Of a stretch of DNA of 22,606 nucleotides, positions 6,645-17,719 are shown piece after piece. Origin of the DNA: a virus; the IMG/VR virus record IMGVR_UViG_3300042894_008376, positions 1 to 22,606 of that record. One strand, written 5' to 3'. Every line of letters starts with the position of its first letter. Within the stretch, counting starts at the first letter, position 1. Made by a program: the position numbers and the translations under genes. The notes beneath the pieces are model-generated. The model worked only from the letters and a program-made list of their open reading frames with translations. It had not been told where the DNA came from and searched no databases.

Positions 6645-7712
6645 TTATTTACGTTTTTTATTGATAATTTTAATCCATTTTTCTCTACGCTCACCGATAG
6701 TTGTTTTTTCATATTCTTCGATTTTTTTTATTGATTGCATATATTCATTTGATATTTTCTTAGGTACTTCTAATTTTACGGAAACATACATGTCTCCCAA
6801 TATTCCATTGGGCAGTTGCAATCCTCTGCCTCGCAATTTGAATTTGGCGTGACTTTGAGTTCCTTCTGGTATTTTTACCGTAATCATTTCATCTGTAATG
6901 GTAGGAACCAAAAGATCACACCCTAAAACCAATTGGCTATAACTCACTGGAACATCAATCGACAAATCAATTCCATCACGATCAAAACATTCATGTTCAC
7001 GAACCAAAACATGAACAATTAAGTCACCAGACTTTCCACCACGAAGCGATTCTTCGCCTTGACCACTAATTTTCAAATTCATTCCACTTTCAATGCCACA
7101 TGGAATTTGAATTTTTATATTCTTTTCTTTGTAGCCAGAGAGCAATCCCGTACCATTGCAATCAACGCATAGTATTGGATTTATTTTTCCAAGACCATTG
7201 CACACAGAGCAATTTGTTCTAAATTCAAAAGGAGCGTTATTGACTTTGGTGAAACCTTCTCCATTACAATTTCCACAAGCTTCATTGCTCACCTGACCTT
7301 GACCTTTGCAAGTGGTACAAGTATTTTTCATTTTGACAATTAAATCTTTATCGCAACCTGTATAGACTTCTTGGAGATCAATTTCCAATCTGATTGTAAG
7401 ATTTCTTCCACGAAATGTACTGTGCTGAAAAAAATCATTCATTACGTCGCCAAAGGAACCATTAAACGAACCGCCTTCAAATCCTCTTCTGCGGAAATGC
7501 ATTGAGGGTCCAACGCTATCATATTCGGCACGTTTATTATCATTAATTAAAATATCATAAGATTCTTGAATTTCACGAAATCTAACATCGGCTTCAGAAT
7601 CGCCGGGATTTTTATCAGGATGATGCTTCAGGGCACCCTTACGGTATGCCCTGACTATATCATCTTTTGTTGCATTTTTAGGAACGCCTAGAACGGCATA
7701 AGGGTCTTTCAT
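6645..7712 (-). CDS. dnaJ: DnaJ (Hsp40), complete type I co-chaperone
   Basis: This 355-residue protein has the full type I layout. The J domain (1-65) carries the HPD tripeptide at 31-33, which stimulates DnaK ATPase. A short Gly/Phe-rich linker follows (about 67-100). The zinc domain has four CxxC motifs, at C132/C135, C146/C149, C168/C171 and C182/C185, each followed by the usual G-x-G pattern. Two C-terminal substrate-binding beta domains follow (about 195-330). The linker is shorter than in E. coli DnaJ, and the protein is about 20 residues shorter overall. It overlaps the GroES-like gene by ATGA and is thus probably co-translated with it. All key residues are present, so it should recruit host DnaK, perhaps for replication or virion assembly. 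Confidence 0.95.
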   Translation of the reverse strand: MKDPYAVLGVPKNATKDDIVRAYRKGALKHHPDKNPGDSEADVRFREIQESYDILINDNKRAEYDSVGPSMHFRRRGFEGGSFNGSFGDVMNDFFQHSTFRGRNLTIRLEIDLQEVYTGCDKDLIVKMKNTCTTCKGQGQVSNEACGNCNGEGFTKVNNAPFEFRTNCSVCNGLGKINPILCVDCNGTGLLSGYKEKNIKIQIPCGIESGMNLKISGQGEESLRGGKSGDLIVHVLVREHECFDRDGIDLSIDVPVSYSQLVLGCDLLVPTITDEMITVKIPEGTQSHAKFKLRGRGLQLPNGILGDMYVSVKLEVPKKISNEYMQSIKKIEEYEKTTIGERREKWIKIINKKRK

Positions 7713-8080
7713 TCTTCTATTATCACACCTTTGATTGAAGAAGGCTCCATCAAGAATCGATCACGATGAATGTTGTCCCAATTAGGGACATGAATGCCGG
7801 GACCTGAAACAGTGACTCTGTCGCCTATATTAAAGCCATAATCTGATGACTTGAAGTTAGGACCTACAGAACGAACATAACCTTGCAAAGGAACTTTCAA
7901 ATCTGTTTTTTCATTAACAGCCAGACTTGTCCCAAGCATTTCCTGAGATGTCAAAAATTCAATAAGAACCTGTGAGCCAGTTGGCTTAACAGATTTGATT
8001 TTAGGAACTTTTGCTCCACTGCCAATAATGGTGGAATCATAAATTGAACCCATAGGTGTAAGAATCTTACTCTTCGACAT
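7709..8080 (-). CDS. GroES-like co-chaperonin
   Basis: A 123-residue protein. After a 30-residue extension, residues 31-122 follow the GroES pattern: VKPTGSQVLIEF for the first strand, a disordered loop at about 46-62 (MLGTSLAVNEKTDLKV) in place of the mobile loop that contacts GroEL, then LQGYVRSVGPN and FNIGDRVTVSG, and a final GVIIEE strand. Such proteins cap GroEL; T4 gp31 does this to enlarge the folding chamber for the capsid protein. This may play the same role, since no GroEL is encoded here. SD is GGGGA before the ATG. The gene ends by overlapping dnaJ. The N-terminal extension and altered loop are unlike bacterial GroES. The assignment rests on pattern, not alignment. Confidence 0.82.
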   Translation of the reverse strand: MSKSKILTPMGSIYDSTIIGSGAKVPKIKSVKPTGSQVLIEFLTSQEMLGTSLAVNEKTDLKVPLQGYVRSVGPNFKSSDYGFNIGDRVTVSGPGIHVPNWDNIHRDRFLMEPSSIKGVIIEE

Positions 8081-8365: not shown

Positions 8366-9583
8366 TCAAGTCCAATAGCAAATAAAGAAACACTTACCAT
8401 CTTTTTCACCAACAATGATTGGATAAAAAAACTTTTTCTTAATGAATATCTTATCCAAATCCCTAGTGGCATCTTCTAAATTTTCATAATCTTGCAAAAT
8501 ACCATTTTCATTATTGAACATTTTATTTTTATAAGCAATTGTTGGAACAATTACTCCAAAATGATCAAATATTGGCTTATCGTTTGCTTCTGGAAACTTC
8601 TCCAACATATTAATTGTATGCATAACTTCAGGAGAAGCTATTTCTTTCAATTCATGAAATGGATAAACCTTTGGATCATAATGATAATTTGCGTCAACAA
8701 CCAAAGATGAATCAAAATAATAATCAGTAAAGAAAGAACGATTTATAGTTACTTGTGCTTCCACACGCATTACATGACCGCCTACCGACAATTGGTAAGA
8801 AGGATTAAATGAATATCCTAATGATTTTGCCAAAATTACTGCGGCACTGGTCATTGTTATACGGTTAAAACCATAATAAGCTTGTTCCATGTTTTCACGA
8901 AACAAATCAATACTTTTACATATTTCTGAAGCAAGACTATGACAGCCCAACTCCTGATAACGCTTCATTTTTCTCTCTGCTTGCTTTAATTCACGCAAGT
9001 AAGCCGCATCATAACGAATGAATTGTTTGAAATTATCAGGCTGAGAATTCCATGCTTCTTCGCCTTTCTTGTAAAAAGCTTGCAAATCAATGGTTTGCAT
9101 TTTTTTAGAAAATCTAATAGCTTCACGTTCATCAGAATTCAATATCATTCTTGCATAAGATTTATTGCAACTGATAGAATCAATTTTACGAACAATATTT
9201 TTGTCTAAAGATTCTTTAATAAGAAGCGATCCAAGAAGTGGAAAAATATGATTTAAATCATTGTTTTTAGCATATTCTGCCATAGCAAGAAACTGAACAC
9301 ATTGTTTTGAAAACTCTTGATCATCGGAAAAACTACCATCAAAAATTGAAACTAAATCTGGATGTGTCATGTCAAGAATACTGGCAAGATAACCCAATTT
9401 TTTACCAAAATGCCCAAATGCAAATTCAAGCAACTCTTGACTTGCATCATGAATTATTCTGAGAATAAGGGGAGGATTTGATGGAATAATTTTTTGTTGG
9501 TTATAATACAAACGACGATTAAACTCATTCTGAACATCAAAGACTTTACAATTGAGAATTTCGTTTTTCATGAAATTATCCAT
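8366..9583 (-). CDS. Protein of unknown function coupled to IF-3, 405 residues
   Basis: I chose the ATG at 9583 (MDNFMKNEIL), which overlaps the IF-3 stop as TGATG with AAGG four bases upstream. A start at 9607 would lie inside the IF-3 gene without an SD. The protein appears mostly alpha-helical through residue 230, with a charged stretch around LRELKQAERKMKRYQEL, then a mixed alpha/beta C-terminal third ending VGEKDGKCFFICYWT. No signal peptide, membrane helix or clear catalytic motif was found. Its tight coupling to IF-3 suggests the two are made together, but not that they share a function. It is the largest unassigned gene in the window. Confidence 0.85.
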   Translation of the reverse strand: MDNFMKNEILNCKVFDVQNEFNRRLYYNQQKIIPSNPPLILRIIHDASQELLEFAFGHFGKKLGYLASILDMTHPDLVSIFDGSFSDDQEFSKQCVQFLAMAEYAKNNDLNHIFPLLGSLLIKESLDKNIVRKIDSISCNKSYARMILNSDEREAIRFSKKMQTIDLQAFYKKGEEAWNSQPDNFKQFIRYDAAYLRELKQAERKMKRYQELGCHSLASEICKSIDLFRENMEQAYYGFNRITMTSAAVILAKSLGYSFNPSYQLSVGGHVMRVEAQVTINRSFFTDYYFDSSLVVDANYHYDPKVYPFHELKEIASPEVMHTINMLEKFPEANDKPIFDHFGVIVPTIAYKNKMFNNENGILQDYENLEDATRDLDKIFIKKKFFYPIIVGEKDGKCFFICYWT

Positions 9584-10137
9584 CAGGCCTTGGGCGTAAA
9601 AAAGCATATAATTCTATTGCCTTCCATAGTTGGTTGCTTTTCAACAATACCAAACTGCTCTACGAGTTCAACGATCTTTTTCATCACGCTAAAACCTTGC
9701 TCTTTATGGCCTAATTCACGATAACCTTTAAATTGAAGATTAAATTGAACTTTACATCCTTCTTCTAAAAACTTTTTGGCTTGATTGACTTTTGTTTCTA
9801 CATCATGATTGGCAATTGCAGGACGCAATCTAATTTCTTTTATTTGAGCCTGTGATTCTCTTTGTTTTTTAGCAGTTTCTTTTTTCTTTAAGTTTTGTTC
9901 GTATTTATAACGACCGTAATCCATTATTCTACAAACTGGTGGCTTTGCAGTTGAAGCGATTTCAACAAGATCAAGACCTTGATCCATTGCAATTTTTCTT
10001 GCCTGTTCTGTTGACATTATGCCAAGCTGTTCATCGTCATGGACAACTCTGACTTGTGGTACTCTTATCTGCCAATTAATTCTGTTTTGATCATCACGAC
10101 TTTCCTTGTTGAACTTATTTCCATTATTCATATTCAT
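9583..10137 (-). CDS. infC: Translation initiation factor IF-3
   Basis: A full-length IF-3 of 184 residues from the ATG at 10137 (MNMNNGNKFN), chosen over an upstream in-frame codon because the family begins close to the RINWQIRVPQVR segment. The N-domain (18-84) carries EQLGIMSTEQA and GLDLVEIASTAKPPVCRIMDYGRYKYEQ in two blocks. A Lys-rich linker follows (83-98), then the C-domain (98-182) with IKEIRLRPAIANHD and CKVQFNLQFKGYRE, which binds the 30S platform. IF-3 proofreads start-codon choice and keeps subunits apart. The phage copy could shift initiation toward phage mRNAs or dissociate host ribosomes. A TTGACA/17/TATTTT promoter lies just upstream. The SD is weak (AGG, ten bases). Confidence 0.97.
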   Translation of the reverse strand: MNMNNGNKFNKESRDDQNRINWQIRVPQVRVVHDDEQLGIMSTEQARKIAMDQGLDLVEIASTAKPPVCRIMDYGRYKYEQNLKKKETAKKQRESQAQIKEIRLRPAIANHDVETKVNQAKKFLEEGCKVQFNLQFKGYRELGHKEQGFSVMKKIVELVEQFGIVEKQPTMEGNRIICFFTPKA

Positions 10138-10178
10138 CGTTTGAAACCTGTTAGCCCCCACAAAAATAAACCTATAGA

Positions 10179-10207
10179 AAAATACTACCAATAATAAGCC
10201 GTGTCAA
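10179..10207 (-). promoter_or_regulatory. Sigma70-like promoter for infC
   Basis: On the minus strand TTGACA (10207-10202) is followed after exactly 17 bases by TATTTT (10184-10179). The -35 is a full consensus match and the -10 matches four of six. Transcription would start near 10172, giving a leader of about 35 bases before the infC ATG. It overlaps the end of the upstream gene, so it would give infC and its followers a separate, host-polymerase-read promoter. Confidence 0.5.
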
Positions 10208-11028
10208 TCATCAATTGTAATTGAATCAACTATTTTAATATAAAAACCTTCTGAATCAACTGGGAACCTTCTAACCCATTCTATCGCCGCATCCATTCCA
10301 CAAGAGAAATTTGATGGTATTAAACTCGAATCAGTAAAACTTGGAACAATATCATCTGGCAATAAATTACTTGGAATTTGATTGCTTGGCACAGTTGACT
10401 GTATCGCTAACATTGGAGCAACAACCATTTTCAACAACTTAAATTCCAAATAATAACATCCGGGCAAACAAGTATCACCAGACGACCACTCATAAACAAA
10501 ATAACTGTTGACCAAAACATCTTTTGAAGTAGTGCCATCGATATTAATTATATCTTGATAAACCATTTCACTTGTTGCTACAGCATTAGAAAATTTTATG
10601 ATTCTTACAATTGTGCCACGTTTCCAAGTTTGAATAGGCGTTCCATGATAGCCTCGCTGCACATTAATCAATTTATTCACTTCATCAAAACCAAGAACCA
10701 ACATTTTTTCAGGCAATCTAGCCTGATTCATAATAATAACATCACCAACCATAATCTGACCAAATCCAATGTTATCAGCAAAGCCAATAACAGTGTCGTC
10801 CTGATCTAGGTTAACTTTGATCTTGCCCTTGGCCCACATAGTGGCTTCTAAGACAAGATCAGTTAAATCCAAAGGACCATCACAATCTTCTATTTTAACC
10901 TTAAATGCTGGCTTAGTATCGTGTCTACGAATAGTAAAATCTGGGCATAACCCACCAATACATCCATATTCGTCTGGACAGCCAGAAGGAGGAGAACTAC
11001 AACCGATTCCTGTAGATGAACATGCCAT
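10204..11028 (-). CDS. Possible baseplate or tail structural protein with Cys-rich N-terminus
   Basis: A 274-residue protein. Residues 1-30 hold seven of the cysteines (C3, C10, C17, C23, C28 and neighbours) in a Ser/Gly/Pro-rich stretch. FTIRRHDTKPAFKVKIEDC then PLDLTDLVLEATMW resembles the N-terminal pattern of phage baseplate upper-protein domains, in which a D-T-x-P and a D-L-T are conserved. The middle has a beta-rich region (GFDEVNKLINVQRGYHGTP) typical of phage neck or baseplate proteins. The ATG at 11028 has no SD; the upstream gene stops four bases before it inside CATAAATAA, so start may depend on coupling. The structural role is inferred. No enzymatic motif is visible. Confidence 0.75.
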   Translation of the reverse strand: MACSSTGIGCSSPPSGCPDEYGCIGGLCPDFTIRRHDTKPAFKVKIEDCDGPLDLTDLVLEATMWAKGKIKVNLDQDDTVIGFADNIGFGQIMVGDVIIMNQARLPEKMLVLGFDEVNKLINVQRGYHGTPIQTWKRGTIVRIIKFSNAVATSEMVYQDIINIDGTTSKDVLVNSYFVYEWSSGDTCLPGCYYLEFKLLKMVVAPMLAIQSTVPSNQIPSNLLPDDIVPSFTDSSLIPSNFSCGMDAAIEWVRRFPVDSEGFYIKIVDSITIDD

Positions 11029-11032
11029 AAAA

Positions 11033-11485
11033 TTATTTATGTTCTAAACACATAAAATAATCTCTAATCCAATTCAAATTACACTTATATTCTTCGATAT
11101 CAATAAAAACAGACTTTATTGCCTCTACTGAACGTGAATCTATATCGCATTTTGGATAATAATATATTTTTTTAAATCCAGAGTTTGCGATAATTGTCAA
11201 AACTGCCTCATATGTTGGCGGACTTGTCGAATATATGGTTCCATCAATTAATTCCGATTTATTATTCAAAACTGCATTGATTTCACTTGGAATTACAACA
11301 GAATTTTGCGAAGAAGAAATATAAGGAGGCGACTCTAAACCATAAGAAGTCATTTTACCAGATGCATCAATAATCAAACTAGCATTTCCTGTGCGTGATT
11401 TAATGGCATACATGAAAGCCATTCCCATCCAATAGTCATGACTTTCAATCTGTGACCAATATTTTTTCTTTTTAATTTGACTCAT
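11033..11485 (-). CDS. dCMP/cytidine-deaminase-fold protein without zinc ligands
   Basis: This 150-residue protein follows the dCMP deaminase pattern: a first helix (SHDYWMGMAFMYAIKS), then KSRTGNASLIIDASGKMTSYGLESPP in the place of S-x-x-x-x-x-V-G-A-V-I-V-x-x-x-x-I-I-S-x-G-Y-N-G-x-P, then EINAVL, then GTIYSTSPPTYEAV and IIANSGFKKIYYYP. In active enzymes the zinc is held by the His of HAE and the two Cys of PCxxC. Here HAE is P66-S67-E68 and the later segment has no Cys or His between residues 85 and 105. Only the catalytic-type Glu remains. It therefore seems unable to deaminate. It is coupled by TGATG to the upstream gene. A regulatory or structural role is inferred. Confidence 0.7.
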   Translation of the reverse strand: MSQIKKKKYWSQIESHDYWMGMAFMYAIKSRTGNASLIIDASGKMTSYGLESPPYISSSQNSVVIPSEINAVLNNKSELIDGTIYSTSPPTYEAVLTIIANSGFKKIYYYPKCDIDSRSVEAIKSVFIDIEEYKCNLNWIRDYFMCLEHK

Positions 11486-11931
11486 CAGTTGGGACTGACC
11501 ATTTGTACATAATTAATGATATAATCGTCAGATTTAAAATGATTCTTAAAGTTTCTCAAATCTTTTTTTTGCGAATCAGTAAGATTCTTTTTAATGACAG
11601 ATTCAGGAATCGGTATATTTGTCTTCCAATATTGACTACTTTTAGACTTAATGACAAAAGAAAATGGAATAACCCCTAAATGTAAAAAATCTGAACACTC
11701 AATAAAATAACAATCTGATTGTGCATCATAAACATATCCCTCAATGGGAATGCCTTTTTTACAGCTAATCCTATTAATGAAATTTTTATTTGAATCTTTA
11801 TTTGTAGCAACAACAATGATATATGTTTCTAGCAATTCTTTCAAAACATAAACACCATTATGTACTTCCTTCAAAATTTTAACTTGCTGCGCTTTAACCA
11901 AAGAATCATTTGTATCAATAAATTCGCTCAT
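11485..11931 (-). CDS. Protein of unknown function, 148 residues
   Basis: A protein beginning MSEFIDTNDSLVKAQQVKIL with a beta-rich middle (GVYVLKELLETYIIVVATN; GYVYDAQSDCYFIECSDF) and a basic helical end (KKNLTDSQKKDLRNFKNHF). No family is recognised. It is first after an extended -10 promoter (TGCTATAAT) about 22 bases upstream of its ATG, with GGGG as a poor SD, and it ends TGATG into the deaminase-fold gene. The two were probably made together. Confidence 0.72.
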   Translation of the reverse strand: MSEFIDTNDSLVKAQQVKILKEVHNGVYVLKELLETYIIVVATNKDSNKNFINRISCKKGIPIEGYVYDAQSDCYFIECSDFLHLGVIPFSFVIKSKSSQYWKTNIPIPESVIKKNLTDSQKKDLRNFKNHFKSDDYIINYVQMVSPN

Positions 11932-11952
11932 GACTACACCCCACTATAATTT

Positions 11953-11981
11953 ATTATAGCAAATTTACAGCCATCAATCTA
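11953..11981 (-). promoter_or_regulatory. Extended -10 sigma70-like promoter
   Basis: TGCTATAAT (11961-11953 on the minus strand) is a perfect extended -10 box. A poor -35 (TAGATT, three of six) lies 17 bases further upstream. Transcription would begin near 11946, leading into the gene starting at 11931. The -10 lies in a perfect 7-bp palindrome (11944-11959, CTATAAT-TT-ATTATAG), which might also be a protein-binding site. Confidence 0.5.
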
Positions 11982-12509
11982 TTTTTTATCTTTAGGAATC
12001 CTATCTTTGCGTCTTTGACTCTTAATTTGCTTGAGTGAATCATCTGATTCTTCAGGCTCATTTCGAGAGAGATCTTTACGTCTTTGACTCTTAATGTTCC
12101 TAAATTTTTCAGGAACATCTGATTCTTCAGGCTCATTTCGAGAGCCATCTTTGCGTCTTTGACTCTTAATGTTCCTAAATTTGTCAGAAGCATCTGACTT
12201 TTTCTTTGCTTCTTCTGATTCTTCTGATTCTTCATCATTCTTTAATTTTTTAATTATTTTTTCTTTTTTCTTTTTCTCTTCGTCTTCTTTTTTCTTTTTC
12301 TCTTCGTCTTCTTTTTTCTTTTTAGCCAATTTAGCAAACCGTTCAGCAGCCTGTTTTCTAGATTTTTTCAAATCCTCTAAATCCTTAGCCAGTAATTCAA
12401 CAGATTTCAGCCAACGCTCAATATCATGATGTGGAATGGGAGCATGACGAGGCTTACCCTTTTTACGGGCCTCGTTAAGTTCATCCATCCATTCCATAAA
12501 CAAAATCAT
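11979..12509 (-). CDS. Lys/Glu-rich repeat protein, probable coiled coil
   Basis: A 176-residue protein. Residues of about 1-60 are helical. Residues of about 60-95 are a highly charged Lys/Glu stretch with the unit KKEDEEKKKK present twice, likely coiled coil. The C-terminal third has three imperfect repeats of 23-25 residues sharing I-K-S-Q-R-R-K-D, separated by acidic S-R-N-E-P-E-E-S. Start is the ATG at 12509, overlapping the upstream stop (ATGA) with AAGG seven bases away. Composition suggests nucleic-acid binding or a virion scaffold. No family is recognised. A 94-residue ORF in another frame over the repeats is an artefact. Confidence 0.75.
   Translation of the reverse strand: MILFMEWMDELNEARKKGKPRHAPIPHHDIERWLKSVELLAKDLEDLKKSRKQAAERFAKLAKKKKEDEEKKKKEDEEKKKKEKIIKKLKNDEESEESEEAKKKSDASDKFRNIKSQRRKDGSRNEPEESDVPEKFRNIKSQRRKDLSRNEPEESDDSLKQIKSQRRKDRIPKDKK
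12011..12190 (-). repeat. Three imperfect direct repeats inside the Lys/Glu-rich gene
   Basis: GTCTTTGACTCTTAAT recurs at 12011, 12080 and 12155, giving periods of 69 and 75 bases. Both are multiples of three and encode the IKSQRRKD units. The copies at 12080 and 12155 share more flanking sequence than the first. Unequal copy drift is likely. Confidence 0.9.
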
Positions 12510-12736
12510 CTACTGCCTTTTTTCTTTTTACGCTTCTTCTTCTTTTTCTTTGGATGATCAGGCGTCCCAAATTCTTCAATCGCCTTTTTTACAAATTCAG
12601 GGTTAGGAGTAGACCGTGACATTGCTACGCCAGCAGACATGGGATAGTTACCCATCATTATCCCTGCCCTAAGACGAGTCGTGGGACTAGCCTCTGAGAT
12701 TTTTTTGCGCCAGTCTTTAAATGATAAAAGTGCCAT
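12506..12736 (-). CDS. Small Lys-tailed protein with prohead-leader-like N-terminus
   Basis: A 76-residue protein. The start MALLSFKDWRKKISEASPTTR has an F-x-x-W/F-x-x-x-I-x-E-A pattern. I-S-E then A matches the (L/I)-x-E cleavage site of T4-type prohead proteases, and F-K-D-W resembles the capsid-targeting leader. The last 20 residues are almost all Lys and Arg (KKKKKKRKKKKGSR), ideal for binding DNA. It could be an internal head or DNA-condensing protein; this is inference. The ATG follows the upstream stop by three bases, with no SD and CTAAATAG directly before it. Confidence 0.75.
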   Translation of the reverse strand: MALLSFKDWRKKISEASPTTRLRAGIMMGNYPMSAGVAMSRSTPNPEFVKKAIEEFGTPDHPKKKKKKRKKKKGSR

Positions 12737-12739
12737 GTA

Positions 12740-13054
12740 CTATTTAGAACTTTTTTTACTAAATTTTAATTTTCCTTTTTCAATATCAACTAAACCAGCC
12801 ATATCCATATTGGCACGAGCTTCTTTATGAGCTTTTTCAATTGTAATTAATTTTTCATGTAAAACCTTCAACCATCGCATTTGAACTACATTTCCCGTGT
12901 GATCAGTGAAGTTTTTATAGTCTCCAAAAACAAAAAAATATTTAAGAAAAGCCTCCTGAATTGGCGTGTCAAAATAATTCAGGAGGTACTTTTTTTCTTT
13001 AGGCAGTTCATAAAAATCAAACTGCCTTCCCAACAAAAATAAATCACGACTCAA
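12740..13054 (-). CDS. Protein of unknown function, 104 residues (TTG start)
   Basis: The frame opens at a TTG at 13054 that overlaps the upstream stop (TTGA), with AAGG about nine bases before it; the only later Met codons lie past residue 55. The protein begins MSRDLFLLGRQFDFYELP and looks helical, with an aromatic-rich stretch (FLKYFFVFGDYKNF) and a Lys-rich end. No family is recognised. A perfect 11-bp inverted repeat lies within the coding sequence (12952-12986). Confidence 0.7.
   Translation of the reverse strand: MSRDLFLLGRQFDFYELPKEKKYLLNYFDTPIQEAFLKYFFVFGDYKNFTDHTGNVVQMRWLKVLHEKLITIEKAHKEARANMDMAGLVDIEKGKLKFSKKSSK
12952..12986. repeat. Perfect 11-bp inverted repeat inside a coding region
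   Basis: CCTCCTGAATT (12952-12962) and AATTCAGGAGG (12976-12986) are perfect reverse complements around a 13-base loop. A T-tract (ACTTTTTTTC) follows on the plus strand, so it could end antisense transcription. On both strands an AGGAGG lies in the right-hand arm, but no start codon follows closely. Confidence 0.75.
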
Positions 13055-13482
13055 AAATCAACACCTTCAATAAGTTCTAAATAAACACATAAAATACCAC
13101 CAGCAAATTCTTTCGGAATTCTAGCATTACCAATATTAACTAGAACTTCTTTGATCAACTCACTATCACGACTAACCTTTTGATTTATATCATTTGCCAT
13201 TTCTGGATATGTCATTGCTAAAGCTTTTATAGAATGATCTATGCCATCACAAACAGTATAGTTCAAAATCATTGAAATTCTTTTTTCATTGTGCAAAAAC
13301 TTATTCGGTATTTTTCCACCAATATGTAAAGATTTATCCTTGAAAAATTGCTCGACATACTGCTTCGCTAATGACTTAGCATTGCACTTAAATTCACTAA
13401 CAATCTTATCGTTTTCATTTAACGAAAGATCGTCGTTCTCAAAATCATCGAAATCTAATGACCCAACATCCTTGTAATCCAT
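13051..13482 (-). CDS. Protein of unknown function, 143 residues
   Basis: The protein has an acidic N-terminus (MDYKDVGSLDFDDFENDDLSLNE in short form) followed by a helical domain (CNAKSLAKQYVEQFF... KALAMTYPEMANDINQK) and hydrophobic end (GGILCVYLELIEG). No motif was recognised. The ATG at 13482 has GGAGG ten bases upstream. It is the first gene of the leftward block toward 10204, divergent from the lipoprotein gene at 13569, so a promoter probably lies in the 86-base gap. Confidence 0.75.
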   Translation of the reverse strand: MDYKDVGSLDFDDFENDDLSLNENDKIVSEFKCNAKSLAKQYVEQFFKDKSLHIGGKIPNKFLHNEKRISMILNYTVCDGIDHSIKALAMTYPEMANDINQKVSRDSELIKEVLVNIGNARIPKEFAGGILCVYLELIEGVDF

Positions 13483-13568
13483 AACGCCAAATCCCTCCAG
13501 CGATTGAACAAGACCGTACTAGCATATGTGGAAAACAGTAAATTGTAAATAGATAGAAAGGAGGAATC

Positions 13569-14069
13569 ATGTCAAAATTTTTAATCATCATAATTACTTC
13601 AATCTCGATAAGCTTGGCAGGATGCGCTAACTTCAACCCAAGAAACAATCCAAAAATTGAAAATAAAAGTGGTAAAATAGAGGATATACGAACTAATCAA
13701 AATGGGCTAATGCTGGAACTTGCTAAAATTAGGCAAGATATAACTGCTCAAAACAGTAAACTGAAAGAGATACAAAGCGGCCTAGTCAACATAAATGCCG
13801 CAGTTTCACGCAATGAGAATACTGGCATTCAAATCATTCAAGGAGATGGGGCATTGATATTTGTTTTCGCCATCATCGTCATAGCTATGTTTTTGTTTTA
13901 CTACCGTGATCGAGCAATCAAAAGCGAAAAAACAACCGAAGTTATGGCAATAGAAATTGCTAGATTCAACAATGCCACACTTAATGAAAGTATATTTAAA
14001 AGTGCCATAAAAATCAATCAAGGGAAAAATGTTTACGATCTAATTAAAAAAAGAATTGAAGAAATTTAA
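13569..14069 (+). CDS. Lipoprotein with coiled coil and second membrane segment
   Basis: A 166-residue protein. The signal peptide (MSKFLIIIITSISISLAGC) ends in the lipobox L-A-G-C, so C19 should be lipidated after cleavage. Residues of about 35-85 are a likely coiled coil (SGKIEDIRTNQNGLMLELAK). A transmembrane helix follows at 95-112 (ALIFVFAIIVIAMFLFYY), then a basic cytoplasmic tail. Having both a lipid anchor and a membrane helix suggests it spans the envelope. The SD AAAGGAGG is the best in the window. Phage lipoproteins can act in lysis or superinfection exclusion; which applies is not known. Confidence 0.85.
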   Translation: MSKFLIIIITSISISLAGCANFNPRNNPKIENKSGKIEDIRTNQNGLMLELAKIRQDITAQNSKLKEIQSGLVNINAAVSRNENTGIQIIQGDGALIFVFAIIVIAMFLFYYRDRAIKSEKTTEVMAIEIARFNNATLNESIFKSAIKINQGKNVYDLIKKRIEEI

Positions 14070-14344
14070 TTCTTCTGATCATAACCCTGCTGCAAATATC
14101 GCAACATAGGATAACCAGAGCAATTGTCTCCTAAAGGCAAATTGTCTTGAATGATAGATTTCCCTTTGGCTTTTAAATTATCGACATATATGTCTATTTC
14201 TCTATCAATCTTTTGTCCCTTAACAGATAACTTTAAACAATAAAATTTTGACCTGTCGCTTTCATCTTGACACAAATAACGACATTTCCTATAAGTTAAA
14301 TCATTTGACAAGCAAACATCATTTATTTGTTTTAAACTCAACAT
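14066..14344 (-). CDS. Protein of unknown function, 92 residues
   Basis: A small protein with five cysteines (C11, C21, C25, C36 and C75 region) in YRKCRYLCQDE and FYCLKL, which may bind metal but show no CxxC pair. It ends QQGYDQKN. The ATG has GGAG nine bases upstream, overlapping the deformylase end. It overlaps the convergent lipoprotein gene by four bases. No family is recognised. Confidence 0.72.
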   Translation of the reverse strand: MLSLKQINDVCLSNDLTYRKCRYLCQDESDRSKFYCLKLSVKGQKIDREIDIYVDNLKAKGKSIIQDNLPLGDNCSGYPMLRYLQQGYDQKN

Positions 14345-14348
14345 TTTG

Positions 14349-14849
14349 TCACTCCATCAATTCAATTTCTTTGCCTATATCACTTATTAATATTTGTTTT
14401 CCATGATCAATCTCGTGCTGAAATACTATTGCCATTAAATTATTTTCTTCTCGATTAATATCATCAAGAACCAAAGATGGCGTCCCAGAAACTCGAAGCT
14501 GCTTGCCCTTTAACATAATTTTCTCAAATCTCTCAACTTCAAATCGCCTCATGCTCCCATCTTCATTCTTAATGGACAAGCAACCTTCGATTGACCTTCT
14601 TGTAGCACCCAATCCTGAGTATTCGCAATTAACGTAATATTCGTAGGATCTGCCCCTTTTTACAATGAACAGATTCCACGGAATGCCGATTTGTACAGCC
14701 GAAAGACCAATCCCAATATTTTCATCACAAATCTTTTCCATCTTATTGCAAAGACGAAAAATATTCATGAGATTATCAATAGGCATGTTTTCTGCCTTTG
14801 GAATCTGACTTTCAGCAACAATCTTCAGCGGTTCATTAATATTAATCAT
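14349..14849 (-). CDS. def: Peptide deformylase
   Basis: This 166-residue protein has all three deformylase motifs: GIGLSAVQIG (46-55, G-x-G-L-A-A-x-Q-I-G with Q53), EGCLSI (88-93, metal ligand C90) and QHEIDHG (144-150, ligands H145 and H149, catalytic E146). The enzyme removes the N-formyl group from new proteins at the ribosome exit. Length is typical, and the usual C-terminal helix is short, as in other phage deformylases. Phage copies are known in marine and other large phages. It is coupled by TAATG to the ribbon-helix-helix gene, itself coupled to bS21, which makes a translation-linked cluster. Confidence 0.95.
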   Translation of the reverse strand: MININEPLKIVAESQIPKAENMPIDNLMNIFRLCNKMEKICDENIGIGLSAVQIGIPWNLFIVKRGRSYEYYVNCEYSGLGATRRSIEGCLSIKNEDGSMRRFEVERFEKIMLKGKQLRVSGTPSLVLDDINREENNLMAIVFQHEIDHGKQILISDIGKEIELME

Positions 14850-15109
14850 TAGCTAGTCAATGCCTTTATAATAGCATCTATCCTCAAACCAAGCCACTGC
14901 TTCAGTGTATCAGGATTAGACCTGTAAGAAACGGGAATTTTCAATACAACAACATCGACATCTTCGTCAATTTCTGGTAAATTCTTTTCAACCAAATCCC
15001 TGATTAATTTAGAAACACTAATATTTCTTTTCTTTGCAACTAACTTCATTTTCTCCTGAATGTCTGGATCAACACTCAGGCTCATGATCGTACCCTTCTT
15101 AGCTGTCAT
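14849..15109 (-). CDS. Ribbon-helix-helix DNA-binding protein
   Basis: An 86-residue protein. Residues 7-45 follow the CopG/Arc pattern: a basic strand (TIMSLSVDP), helix one (DIQEKMKLVAKKR) and helix two after the N-I-S-V-S turn (KLIRDLVEKNL). Such proteins dimerise and insert the strand into the major groove to repress promoters. The C-terminal 40 residues are acidic then hydrophobic, possibly a second domain. It is linked by TAATG junctions to bS21 upstream and deformylase downstream, so it could regulate this operon. That is inference. No operator was identified. Confidence 0.85.
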   Translation of the reverse strand: MTAKKGTIMSLSVDPDIQEKMKLVAKKRNISVSKLIRDLVEKNLPEIDEDVDVVVLKIPVSYRSNPDTLKQWLGLRIDAIIKALTS

Positions 15110-15396
15110 TATTCACCTTTGGCTTTTGCCTTCTTGTTATCACTCTTTTTGGGCTTTCTTCGTTCAGGAAAATTTTCACGAAGTTTTTCCTTGAGACGAA
15201 CATTCTGAGCTTCACGATTTTTTCTTCGACGCAACTGACCGGGAGTTTCATAATACTCCCTTTCTTTATAATCATGTAAAATTCCAGCCTCTGCCACTTG
15301 CTTTTTAAAAGCTGTGAACATTTTCTTAAATGCTATTTCCCTCTCATACCAACTAGGATTTAAGGGCAAATCACGAAGTTCAACCTTACAAGCCAT
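15109..15396 (-). CDS. rpsU: Ribosomal protein bS21 homologue
   Basis: This 95-residue protein resembles bS21. EREIAFKKMFTAFKKQVAEAG (split at 18-38) matches the helix E-x-A-L-R-R-F-K-R-x-C-E-K-A-G of E. coli S21, and ILHDYKEREYYETPGQLRRRK matches V-L-x-E-x-R-R-R-E-F-Y-E-K-P-T-x-x-R-K-R. A Lys/Arg-rich tail of about 25 residues replaces the bacterial end. bS21 sits on the 30S platform near the anti-SD end of 16S rRNA and helps mRNA capture. Phage bS21 genes have been reported in large phages and proposed to redirect host ribosomes. SD is AAAGGA. It heads the TAATG-linked series bS21, ribbon-helix-helix, deformylase. Confidence 0.9.
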   Translation of the reverse strand: MACKVELRDLPLNPSWYEREIAFKKMFTAFKKQVAEAGILHDYKEREYYETPGQLRRRKNREAQNVRLKEKLRENFPERRKPKKSDNKKAKAKGE

Positions 15397-15407: not shown

Positions 15408-16550
15408 TTAATCTTTAATTACCTTGATGAATCTTGTGCCTATCTTCTTTTTCTTCTGCGGCTGCACATATTCTTCATACGGTGTCATCTGGTACGATTC
15501 CGCCGTAGAAGGCCAATTGTCACGATTTAATTCTGGTAAAAATAAGTCCAACTTATTCATAATAGTTGAATATGTGTCCTTATTCCAAAAACCAGCATCG
15601 CCATTGTTTATGATAGTAGAAAATGAAAAAATATATTGCTTAGGCAATTGTGATCCGCCTAAATCATCAATTTCATGTTCTTTGGTCCCAGCATATCTCG
15701 ATCTTTCATCCAAAACCAAATAAGGACATCTGGCCAAAATAGCCAAACGAGAAATACTATTGAAAGTATCAAGAACACAACCCGTAGCACGCATGGCAGC
15801 AAGAGCCTTTATCACATCTGGCTCTCGCAAATAAATACACTTGTCTCCCAATTCCTCAGAAAGATCAAAAGACAAGAAATTCTGCCACAACACAGGCGTT
15901 ACTTTATTTTCAACCAAATAATCAACTAAACCAATGTAAAATTCACGCTTGGCTTTAATCTGATCACTAATCCCATTATGCCAAAATTTACCATAAATTG
16001 ATGGATGAATAAAAACCTTATAACCAGATTTTGTCATCAAAAGCTTATTGAAATCTCTGCCTATAATAGAAGCACTCGGCACAAATGGCAAAAATCTCTT
16101 TACATTGTTAAATTTTTCAAAAAAGAAATTGGTAAAACCATTCCTGTAATATTTTTGCATTTCAGAAACATCAATAACATCCCTGAAAAACTCATTGATG
16201 TTTCTAGTATAAGACAAACTTATATCAGACCTATTTTTCATTCCCTCGGAATTTTCATAAAACTTTTTCATAATCGAATCATCTGTCAAAGACCAATACT
16301 CATCAGCATATGGAAATAAACCTTGAAATCCGGGCCATGAAGCAACTATGAAGTATTTTGAGCCTCTATACTCTTCCCTGTATCGATGTAAAATATATGA
16401 TGAAAGAATAGTAAGGCTTCTTAAATCGCCAAAAAAAGGTAAAATACAAACATTCGTAAAGTCAGTTGGAATTCTCTTTTCTTCATAGCGATCTCTGTTA
16501 AAACCATTACGTTCTGCCGACCGTTTTAAAAAATCTGCAACAGAATTCAC
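15408..16550 (-). CDS. GT-B-like glycosyltransferase
   Basis: The GTG at 16550 is chosen: GGAGG lies five bases upstream and the codon overlaps the previous stop as GTGA. The ORF is open further up only to a TTG at 16562 inside the upstream gene. The 380-residue protein has an N-terminal Rossmann-like half (TNVCILPFFGDLRSL) and a C-terminal half with the GT-B pattern (KVFIHPSIYGKFW; TPVLWQNF; GCVLDTFNSISRLAILARCPYLVLDE), in which a conserved acidic position and a hydrophobic helix shape the nucleotide-sugar site. It is likely distantly related to ADP-heptose-type transferases. Donor and acceptor are unknown. It is adjacent to another GT-B-like gene, suggesting sequential sugars. Confidence 0.75.
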   Translation of the reverse strand: MNSVADFLKRSAERNGFNRDRYEEKRIPTDFTNVCILPFFGDLRSLTILSSYILHRYREEYRGSKYFIVASWPGFQGLFPYADEYWSLTDDSIMKKFYENSEGMKNRSDISLSYTRNINEFFRDVIDVSEMQKYYRNGFTNFFFEKFNNVKRFLPFVPSASIIGRDFNKLLMTKSGYKVFIHPSIYGKFWHNGISDQIKAKREFYIGLVDYLVENKVTPVLWQNFLSFDLSEELGDKCIYLREPDVIKALAAMRATGCVLDTFNSISRLAILARCPYLVLDERSRYAGTKEHEIDDLGGSQLPKQYIFSFSTIINNGDAGFWNKDTYSTIMNKLDLFLPELNRDNWPSTAESYQMTPYEEYVQPQKKKKIGTRFIKVIKD

Positions 16551-17719
16551 AATCGCCTCCAATTTTCTTGTTTTTTCAACATGTCGTTCACTATGCCTTC
16601 GTCTTCAATTAAACCCAAAACATCATCCCAATTATTTTGACACATTTCATCAATCGCTTCATCTAAAACTTTTAATGCTCTGTCCTGATTTTCCAACACA
16701 TTAAAATAATGAGCCAATATCAATTTTTTCTTATTACTATCAGTCGTCAACGCTATTCGCTTACCTTCCTGACCATTGCCAGCAATTTGATCAGGCGTCT
16801 CAAATAATATCCAAGGAATACCAATAATACTCGCCAATCTTGTCGAAGCAGTCCAAAACTGAACAGTAAATTTTAAATTAGAAATAATCGCAAGAGTTAA
16901 TTCTAAATCCCTTGATTCTGGCATCCTGCTAAAATCTACAATGTGATCCACAGGACAAGGCAATACACTTTGCTTTTCACCTAGCCAAATTGGATTATAT
17001 CCCTTTTTTTCCAAATTCTTGATAAGATTAATGTAAAACTCAGATGGTAAATTTCTTCCATAAGCTTTTCTTGATCTGGCGAAAATACCAACTGAATTTT
17101 CCTTAAGATACTTTCTCGCCCTCTCCTGCACTTTTTGACAAGGAAAAGGAATTTTTACAGCATTTTCCCTATGATTCGACACATCCGACAAAAAACCCTT
17201 TTTTACTTTCATTGAATGACAAATTGGACAACCTTTATCCACATCGGCAGAAGCCCACATTTTCTTGCACACTTCACATGTGTTGCCAACACAAAGATAA
17301 CCAAGACTGGCACCTTTGAAAAGCATACCATATTTATCTAAACTTTTTTCTATTCGACGAATATTAATCGAACTATTGATAAAGGCATTTGCATATTCTC
17401 GCAAACACATGGCACTCTCTTCTATCTCCCAAAATTCATCAACTAAGTGCCTGTACAAATACTCACGACCATACCAACCAACACAAATTACATATGCACT
17501 AGGATTGTTCGCAATCAACATTGGAATACAATACATCAAACCAATTGTTTCACAGCCAAATTCACTAAAACAAGTTATAATTAAAATACGATTAATGTTT
17601 TCTGGCTTTGGACGATTATTAAATTTATATTTACGAAAATTTATTTCATTATACAAAAATTCTCTTGGTAATAATTTACCATCGCCCTGATTACGACGAC
17701 ACGAAGTTAAAAGTCTCAT
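16547..17719 (-). CDS. GT-B-like glycosyltransferase with zinc-knuckle insertion
   Basis: This 390-residue protein has GT-B features: an N-domain (NINRILIITCFSEFGCET), a C-domain with VGIFARSRKAYGRNLP (about 210-225), YNPIWLGEKQ, and QFWTASTRLASIIGIPWILFE, which resemble GT9 transferases. Between the halves is an insertion with two CxxC pairs (C148/C151 and C164/C167), probably binding zinc, an unusual addition for this fold. The start overlaps the zinc-ribbon gene by ATGA and the end overlaps the next glycosyltransferase by GTGA. The three form one translation-coupled unit. The insertion may bind nucleic acid or a partner, so DNA-base glycosylation is worth considering. Confidence 0.75.
   Translation of the reverse strand: MRLLTSCRRNQGDGKLLPREFLYNEINFRKYKFNNRPKPENINRILIITCFSEFGCETIGLMYCIPMLIANNPSAYVICVGWYGREYLYRHLVDEFWEIEESAMCLREYANAFINSSINIRRIEKSLDKYGMLFKGASLGYLCVGNTCEVCKKMWASADVDKGCPICHSMKVKKGFLSDVSNHRENAVKIPFPCQKVQERARKYLKENSVGIFARSRKAYGRNLPSEFYINLIKNLEKKGYNPIWLGEKQSVLPCPVDHIVDFSRMPESRDLELTLAIISNLKFTVQFWTASTRLASIIGIPWILFETPDQIAGNGQEGKRIALTTDSNKKKLILAHYFNVLENQDRALKVLDEAIDEMCQNNWDDVLGLIEDEGIVNDMLKKQENWRRL

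What the first reader, a model, noticed from the sequence alone, without database searches (positions are those of the whole stretch)
9583..15396. Three translation-takeover genes in one phage window: IF-3, bS21 and peptide deformylase
IF-3 (9583-10137), bS21 (15109-15396) and deformylase (14349-14849) are each complete and retain key residues. They act at 30S initiation, mRNA capture and nascent-chain processing. Phage bS21 and phage deformylase have been reported separately; phage IF-3 is less often discussed. All three within about 6 kb suggests a coordinated shift of the host ribosome toward phage messages. This is direct for the genes and inference for the coordination.
Basis: partly seen in the sequence, partly recalled or inferred. 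Interest (0 to 1): 0.8.

Follow-up and report, generated by a model that had tools for sequence, protein, structure and literature searches.

The report
Huge-phage block of translation genes
This piece of a huge bacteriophage carries its own copies of three bacterial protein-synthesis genes (IF-3, ribosomal protein S21 and peptide deformylase); the genes are real and kept by selection, but huge phages were already known to carry such genes, and their closeness mostly reflects a gene order that the whole phage lineage keeps.

Summary
The three genes are real: IF-3 (9583-10137), bS21 (15109-15396) and peptide deformylase (14349-14849) pass Pfam cut-offs. The deformylase keeps its active-site motifs and fold.

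The window belongs to a huge-phage lineage whose published member LR756511.1 (595 kb) has the same block in the same order. bS21, a ribbon-helix-helix (RHH) gene and deformylase (PDF) abut. The order g29-bS21-RHH-PDF holds in all 47 close deformylase loci among 80 examined; bS21 and RHH lie beside none of the other 33. IF-3 is in 28 of 29 records tested.

Neighbours without a known link to translation are kept about as well (g29 47, g30 46, g25 45, g23 44 of 47), and an opposite-strand gene splits bS21-RHH-PDF from IF-3. So closeness is mostly lineage synteny. Partly against that, bS21 and IF-3 also lie close in the separate Atu_ph07/Phosso lineage, but not in two other phages; PDF is far away or absent there.

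Huge-phage IF3, S21 and PDF and the takeover model are in print (Al-Shayeb 2020). New member of a known kind; I did not find the conserved trio in print.

The parts
9583..10137 (-). translation initiation factor IF-3, 184 aa
   Evidence: IF3_N and IF3_C over cut-off; TIGR00168; start supported by relatives
15109..15396 (-). ribosomal protein bS21, 95 aa, about 11 residues longer at the N-terminus than the 71-aa bS21 chain 10fz_U
   Evidence: PF01165 and TIGR00030 over cut-off; alignment ranges
14849..15109 (-). ribbon-helix-helix protein (DUF6364 / Arc-like), possible regulator of the run
   Evidence: DUF6364 29.7 bits over cut-off 27.3, RHH_1 below cut-off; phrog_3180 Arc-like repressor E 4.5e-6
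14349..14849 (-). peptide deformylase, 166 aa
   Evidence: PF01327 over cut-off; motifs; fold
14066..14344 (-). g25, small protein with four invariant cysteines, last gene of the bS21 run
   Evidence: no Pfam, PHROG or NCBIfam match; alignment of 16
15408..16562 (-). g29, gene directly upstream of bS21; no Pfam match
16547..17719 (-). g30, gene upstream of g29; no Pfam match
13569..14069 (+). g24, opposite-strand gene that separates the bS21 run from the IF-3 run
   Evidence: weak holin-like PHROG match (E 0.0093)
8366..9583 (-). g15, unknown protein directly after IF-3
   Evidence: no family; AF2 pLDDT 82.7, no PDB match

Best explanation
A conserved core block of a huge-phage lineage that supplies the phage's own copies of 30S-initiation and nascent-chain-processing proteins. 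Most likely mechanism (inferred): phage bS21 exchanges into host 30S subunits and phage IF-3 joins initiation complexes; together they keep initiation efficient on abundant phage mRNAs or favour it, while phage deformylase keeps N-terminal processing in step with the high rate of phage protein synthesis. Shown: the genes, family membership, PDF fold, low dN/dS, lineage-wide retention, the abutting bS21-RHH-PDF arrangement. Inferred: co-expression of bS21 and PDF from one transcript, RHH as its regulator, ribosome incorporation, preference for phage messages.
For: Family hits; active-site motifs and fold of PDF; low dN/dS; g29-bS21-RHH-PDF order in 47 of 47 close loci, 36 distinct at 95% PDF identity; bS21 in 18 of 18 records tested (17 over cut-off) and IF-3 in 28 of 29, spacing 3.0-14.2 kb in the 17 records; IF-3 of 16 window-family rows forms one group (87/67) apart from a group that holds all 80 sampled bacteria (97/88), which suggests an old, vertically kept gene; bS21 and IF-3 lie close again in Atu_ph07 and Phosso; a pelagiphage bS21 enters E. 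coli ribosomes (PMC6375957).
Against: No expression or ribosome data for this lineage. A viral bS21 left E. coli ribosomes at about 5% activity, so the effect could be inhibition. Linkage in the lineage is hardly stronger than that of neighbours. RHH and PDF are both missing in 3 of 29 bS21 contigs (L133, L135, L136). One of 29 records lacks IF-3 (G023) although its contig runs some 40 kb past bS21. bS21 and IF-3 are far apart in LR756501 and LR756504.
Confidence: 0.6

Rival explanations
1. Each gene on its own makes up for a host protein (IF-3, bS21, PDF) that becomes limiting after host gene shut-off. There is no redirection to phage messages and no coordination; closeness is lineage synteny.
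For: Neighbours are about equally conserved (g29 47, g30 46, g25 45, g23 44, g22 43 of 47); opposite-strand g24 splits the block; RHH and PDF can be absent while bS21 and IF-3 stay (L135/L136); in LR756501 and LR756504 bS21 and IF-3 are far apart.
Against: bS21 and RHH abut in 20 of 20 loci measured (gap -4 to +15 bases), so these at least are probably made together; bS21 and IF-3 are close again, in the reverse order, in Atu_ph07 and Phosso.
Confidence: 0.28
2. The set is a shut-off device: phage bS21 poisons host ribosomes, and phage IF-3 (altered at positions matching R112 and R168 of the chain 8jsg_A) biases or blocks initiation on host messages.
For: Published 5% activity of E. coli ribosomes carrying a pelagiphage bS21; residue changes in IF-3.
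Against: The published effect may be a mismatch between phage protein and foreign host (the paper's own caveat); low dN/dS fits normal function as well; window genes use ordinary Shine-Dalgarno-like sites (21 of 31 genes against 104 of 410 internal ATGs).
Confidence: 0.1

Closest known systems
Huge phages of Al-Shayeb et al. 2020 (PMC7162821), in particular the uncultured phage record LR756511.1, 595 kb (that this record comes from that paper is recalled)
   Same: The paper reports IF1, IF3, S21 and PDF in huge phages with the same takeover model. LR756511.1 holds the same order DnaE-g34-g31-g30-g29-bS21-RHH-PDF-g25-g23-g22-g19-g17-IF-3-g15, with bS21 42%, RHH 48%, PDF 47% and IF-3 47% identical.
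   Different: LR756511.1 also has strong L7/L12 and IF1 matches. Of the 10 other records searched none has IF1, and one has two short, weak L12-like matches; those records may be incomplete.
Sinorhizobium jumbo phage AP-J-162 and its kind (Atu_ph07, Phosso)
   Same: AP-J-162 is reported with S21 (gp532), IF-3 (gp547), L7/L12 (gp556) and a formylmethionyl-tRNA deformylase (gp154). In Phosso bS21 and IF-3 are about 7 kb apart, in Atu_ph07 about 1 kb across the record start.
   Different: The deformylase is far from the pair in Phosso and not found in Atu_ph07; by its gene number it is far in AP-J-162 too. IF-3 precedes bS21, lies beside a Clp gene and is a separate branch.
Pelagimyophages (PMC7029224)
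   Same: Peptide deformylase and S21 are both core genes.
   Different: There S21 is stated to belong to no specific gene cluster and PDF lies in a DNA-metabolism operon; here the two flank an RHH gene.
bS21 phages of freshwater Bacteroidetes (PMC9723584)
   Same: Phage bS21 with a proposed ribosome-hijack role, late expression.
   Different: Other neighbours (terminase, capsid, prohead protease); the words deformylase and initiation factor do not occur in the main text.
Asteriusvirus 121Q, Mimasvirus GAP32 and Xanthomonas phage XaC1 IF-3
   Same: Jumbo-phage IF-3 near proteostasis genes.
   Different: Very divergent IF-3 branch; no bS21 or PDF match in these three.

Membership tests
IF-3 (infC) | both IF3_N and IF3_C domains over cut-off | tested here: met
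   TIGR00168 181 bits, cut-off 60
IF-3 (infC) | basic 30S-contact residues of the C domain | tested here: inconclusive
   positions of R99, K110, R116 and R147 are R or K; those of R112 and R168 are N. Importance of these positions is recalled.
bS21 | Ribosomal_S21 profile over cut-off | tested here: met
   (match begins at profile position 11 of 55; the N-terminal part is unlike)
bS21 | incorporation into the 30S subunit | not testable with these tools
   needs pull-down or mass spectrometry
Peptide deformylase | motifs GxGLxAxQ, EGCLS, QHExDH | tested here: met
   15 of 15 aligned sequences, window included
Peptide deformylase | deformylase fold | tested here: met
   AF2 pLDDT 92.9; top PDB match 2ew7 E 2.1e-9
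Peptide deformylase (NCBIfam equivalog TIGR00079) | score over equivalog cut-off 103.95 | tested here: not met
   52.3 bits: a divergent member of the superfamily, catalytic motifs kept
Huge-phage lineage of LR756511.1 | shared syntenic block around bS21 and IF-3 | tested here: met
Coordinated translation-takeover operon of all three genes | one uninterrupted same-strand gene run holding bS21, PDF and IF-3 | tested here: not met
   g24 on the other strand lies between them and in 40 of 47 loci; transcripts were not measured

The most novel reading that the evidence does not exclude
A lineage-wide, matched 30S remodelling kit: in this huge-phage lineage bS21 and IF-3, both acting at 30S initiation, have co-evolved, with a bS21-RHH-PDF operon whose RHH protein times the switch from host to phage ribosomes. 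The phage IF-3 would be the partner that makes phage-bS21 ribosomes active, which would explain why a phage bS21 alone gave inactive E. coli ribosomes. That bS21 and IF-3 lie close again, in reverse order, in Atu_ph07 and Phosso fits this; I raised the odds from 0.15 to 0.2 for that result.
Probability: 0.2. Interest if true: 0.65.

Novelty: new member of a known kind. Interest (0 to 1): 0.32.

Why it matters
If the kit works as proposed, a phage would rebuild the host initiation complex with its own parts, a direct case of functionally specialised ribosomes. The conserved bS21-RHH-PDF order gives a marker to find such phages. As it stands, the window mostly confirms and extends a published pattern.

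Tried and rejected
Host phylum from IF-3: the window-family group is apart from the group that holds all 80 sampled bacteria, so no host call is made. In the same tree LR756500, LR756501 and LR756504 fall with Flavobacteriaceae; for the two over 634 kb (LR756501, LR756504) this agrees with the paper's statement on genomes of that size.

Control by anti-Shine-Dalgarno sequestration as in Bacteroidia was considered. Window genes carry ordinary Shine-Dalgarno-like sites, and I had no F. johnsoniae bS21 to align, so this was dropped.

Promoter scan: 35 promoter-like sites against 39.8 expected; 9 terminator-like sites against 4.9 (sd 2.0), none used as evidence. No tRNA and no Rfam match. g15 was folded in the hope of a translation factor: no PDB match (best E 0.71). 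GroEL as partner of the GroES-like gene: 0 of 11 records (records may be fragments).

Rows dropped or limited: one search confirmed 97 deformylase relatives and kept 80; the order was tallied for the 47 with E <= 1e-20 (L145-L191), and the other 33 gave no profile match except PDF within the DNA held (up to 3 kb each side). All 28 RHH loci lie on contigs of those 47. Of 29 bS21 contigs 24 have RHH and PDF, 2 are cut by the contig end (L024/L126, L134), 3 lack both. Near-identical contigs are counted apart in these tallies except where 'distinct' is said. The output was cut for L012-L014; one search covers their bS21, RHH, PDF, g25 and IF-3. In one search three pairs were run per gene; the two others gave infinite dS in some genes and were not used. 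The control is ATGs in any frame inside genes; the 31 genes were chosen by me from the ORF list. Start codons were chosen by script.

Not found in print: the bS21-RHH-PDF order, by searches of the CC-licensed PMC library only; supplementary files and most subscription journals were not seen.
Full report
What is there. The window (22,606 bases, a virus record) is coded mainly on the minus strand. IF-3 (9583-10137), peptide deformylase (14349-14849) and bS21 (15109-15396) are intact and pass Pfam cut-offs; IF-3 and bS21 also pass NCBIfam equivalog cut-offs, the deformylase does not. Neighbours include DnaJ, a GroES-like protein below the Pfam cut-off, dUTPase and a DnaE fragment, and a virion structural protein (phrog_1645). 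The record is phage.

Quality of the genes. The deformylase motifs are present in 15 of 15 aligned sequences, and its AlphaFold2 model (pLDDT 92.9, 14 rows) matches peptide deformylases in all 50 PDB rows shown. bS21 matches solved bacterial bS21 chains over residues 23-77 at most, with about 11 more N-terminal residues than the 71-aa chain 10fz_U; the 2020 paper mentions N-terminal extensions in phage S21. IF-3 aligns over residues 35-201 of the longer frame to solved IF-3 chains, with N at the positions of R112 and R168 of chain 8jsg_A. dN/dS for the pair L007-L018 is 0.033-0.104 in the four genes, with dS near saturation.

Arrangement. In the window bS21, a ribbon-helix-helix protein (14849-15109) and the deformylase overlap by one base each. 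Over 20 loci measured (window, near-copies and LR756511.1 included) the bS21-RHH gap is -4 to +15 bases and the RHH-PDF gap -64 to +59, with starts chosen by script. g31, g30, g29 and g25 belong to the same close run. g24 (13569-14069) is on the other strand and parts this run from the IF-3 run, where g15 follows IF-3 with a 1-base overlap if it starts at the ATG at 9583.

Relatives. 29 IMG/VR contigs encode this bS21: 24 have RHH and PDF after it, 2 are cut by the contig end, 3 lack both. Searching with the deformylase gave 97 relatives of which 80 were kept. In the 47 with E <= 1e-20 (36 distinct at 95% PDF identity) g29-bS21-RHH-PDF stand in order in all 47; in the other 33 none of bS21, RHH or g25 was found in the DNA held, up to 3 kb each side. 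IF-3 was found in 11 of 11 records and 17 of 18 others; bS21 in those 18 of 18, 17 over cut-off. The spacing bS21 to IF-3 is 3.0-14.2 kb, median 6.4 kb, in 17 records. The record LR756511.1, 595 kb, has the same block.

Does closeness mean coordination? The first control is the neighbours: g29 is in 47 of 47 loci, g30 46, g25 45, g23 44, g22 43 on the expected strand, g24 40, g31 34 (a few loci are cut short). Genes with no known link to translation are kept in place about as firmly as bS21, RHH and PDF, so closeness within the lineage is explained by synteny. What remains is the abutting of bS21, RHH and PDF, which makes their co-expression likely. In L135/L136 RHH and PDF are both gone while bS21, g25 and IF-3 stay; L133 lacks RHH, PDF and g25 in the DNA held.

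The second control is other phages with IF-3 (nine records, LR756511.1 among them). Five have bS21 over cut-off. In Phosso bS21 and IF-3 are about 7 kb apart on one strand, in Atu_ph07 about 1 kb apart across the start of the circular record, in both with IF-3 first, the reverse of the window. In LR756504 and LR756501 they are hundreds of kilobases apart in record coordinates (over 200 kb if circular). 121Q, GAP32, XaC1 and LR756500 have no bS21 match. PDF is found only in LR756511.1 and Phosso, in Phosso about 257 kb from IF-3. So closeness of bS21 and IF-3 recurs in one other lineage and fails in two phages; closeness of PDF does not recur.

Origin. In a tree of 104 IF-3 sequences (16 window-family, 8 other phage, 80 bacteria) the window family is one group (87/67), apart from a group of all 80 bacteria and five other phages (97/88). 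Other phage IF-3 sequences fall elsewhere: 121Q/GAP32/XaC1 on a long branch; Phosso/Atu_ph07; LR756500/LR756501/LR756504 beside Flavobacteriaceae. Phages appear to have taken IF-3 several times; this lineage has held its copy for long. Its host is not resolved.

What is known. Al-Shayeb et al. 2020 (PMC7162821, passages) report IF1, IF3, S4, S1, S21, L7/L12 and PDF in huge phages with the takeover model. AP-J-162 (PMC11242549, passages) has S21, L7/L12, IF-3 and a formylmethionyl-tRNA deformylase. Pelagimyophages have PDF and S21 as core genes (PMC7029224, passages). Lake Baikal viruses are reported with PDF in one and S21 in others (PMC7678222, passages). Mizuno et al. (PMC6375957, passages) showed a phage bS21 entering E. 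coli ribosomes, which were then about 5% active. Chen et al. (PMC9723584, passages and one section) describe bS21 phages of Bacteroidetes. McNutt et al. (PMC9976891, passages) describe ribosomes lacking bS21. A review mentions jumbo-phage IF3 (PMC7824862, one passage). A 2026 cyanophage paper reports six ribosomal proteins (PMC13157829, abstract and outline). Phage IF-3 is thus not rare: 71 of 50,697 phage records match this IF-3 at E <= 1e-5 (some are short, unannotated records that could be host DNA).

Verdict. Observation confirmed; interpretation partly supported; a further member of a published kind. The bS21-RHH-PDF order kept across 36 distinct phages is the one point I did not find in print, within the searches named in Tried and rejected.

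Noticed in passing
9583-10137 and other phage IF-3 loci (L137-L140, L144): IF-3 sits beside proteostasis genes in unrelated jumbo phages: ClpS and a DnaJ-like gene in 121Q, ClpS-domain genes in XaC1 and GAP32, a Clp ATPase subunit in Atu_ph07 and Phosso; here the third and fourth genes after IF-3 are GroES-like and DnaJ.
   Followed up: partly
8366-9583: Protein g15 directly follows IF-3 in the relatives compared, including LR756511.1 (28% identity); no family and no PDB fold match.
   Followed up: partly
7709-8080: GroES-like protein below the Pfam cut-off; no GroEL match in any of 11 records searched, so it may serve the host chaperonin.
   Followed up: partly
14066-14344: Small protein g25 with four invariant cysteines, found after the deformylase in 45 of 47 loci, and the next gene found after bS21 in L135 where RHH and PDF are missing.
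   Followed up: partly
L028:15708-17357: LR756511.1 has a 549-aa protein between g17 and IF-3 that looks like a thiamine-diphosphate enzyme (my reading, no family search done).
   Followed up: no
L028:14469-14924: LR756511.1 has a 151-aa protein in the block that looks like a deoxycytidylate deaminase (my reading, no family search done).
   Followed up: no
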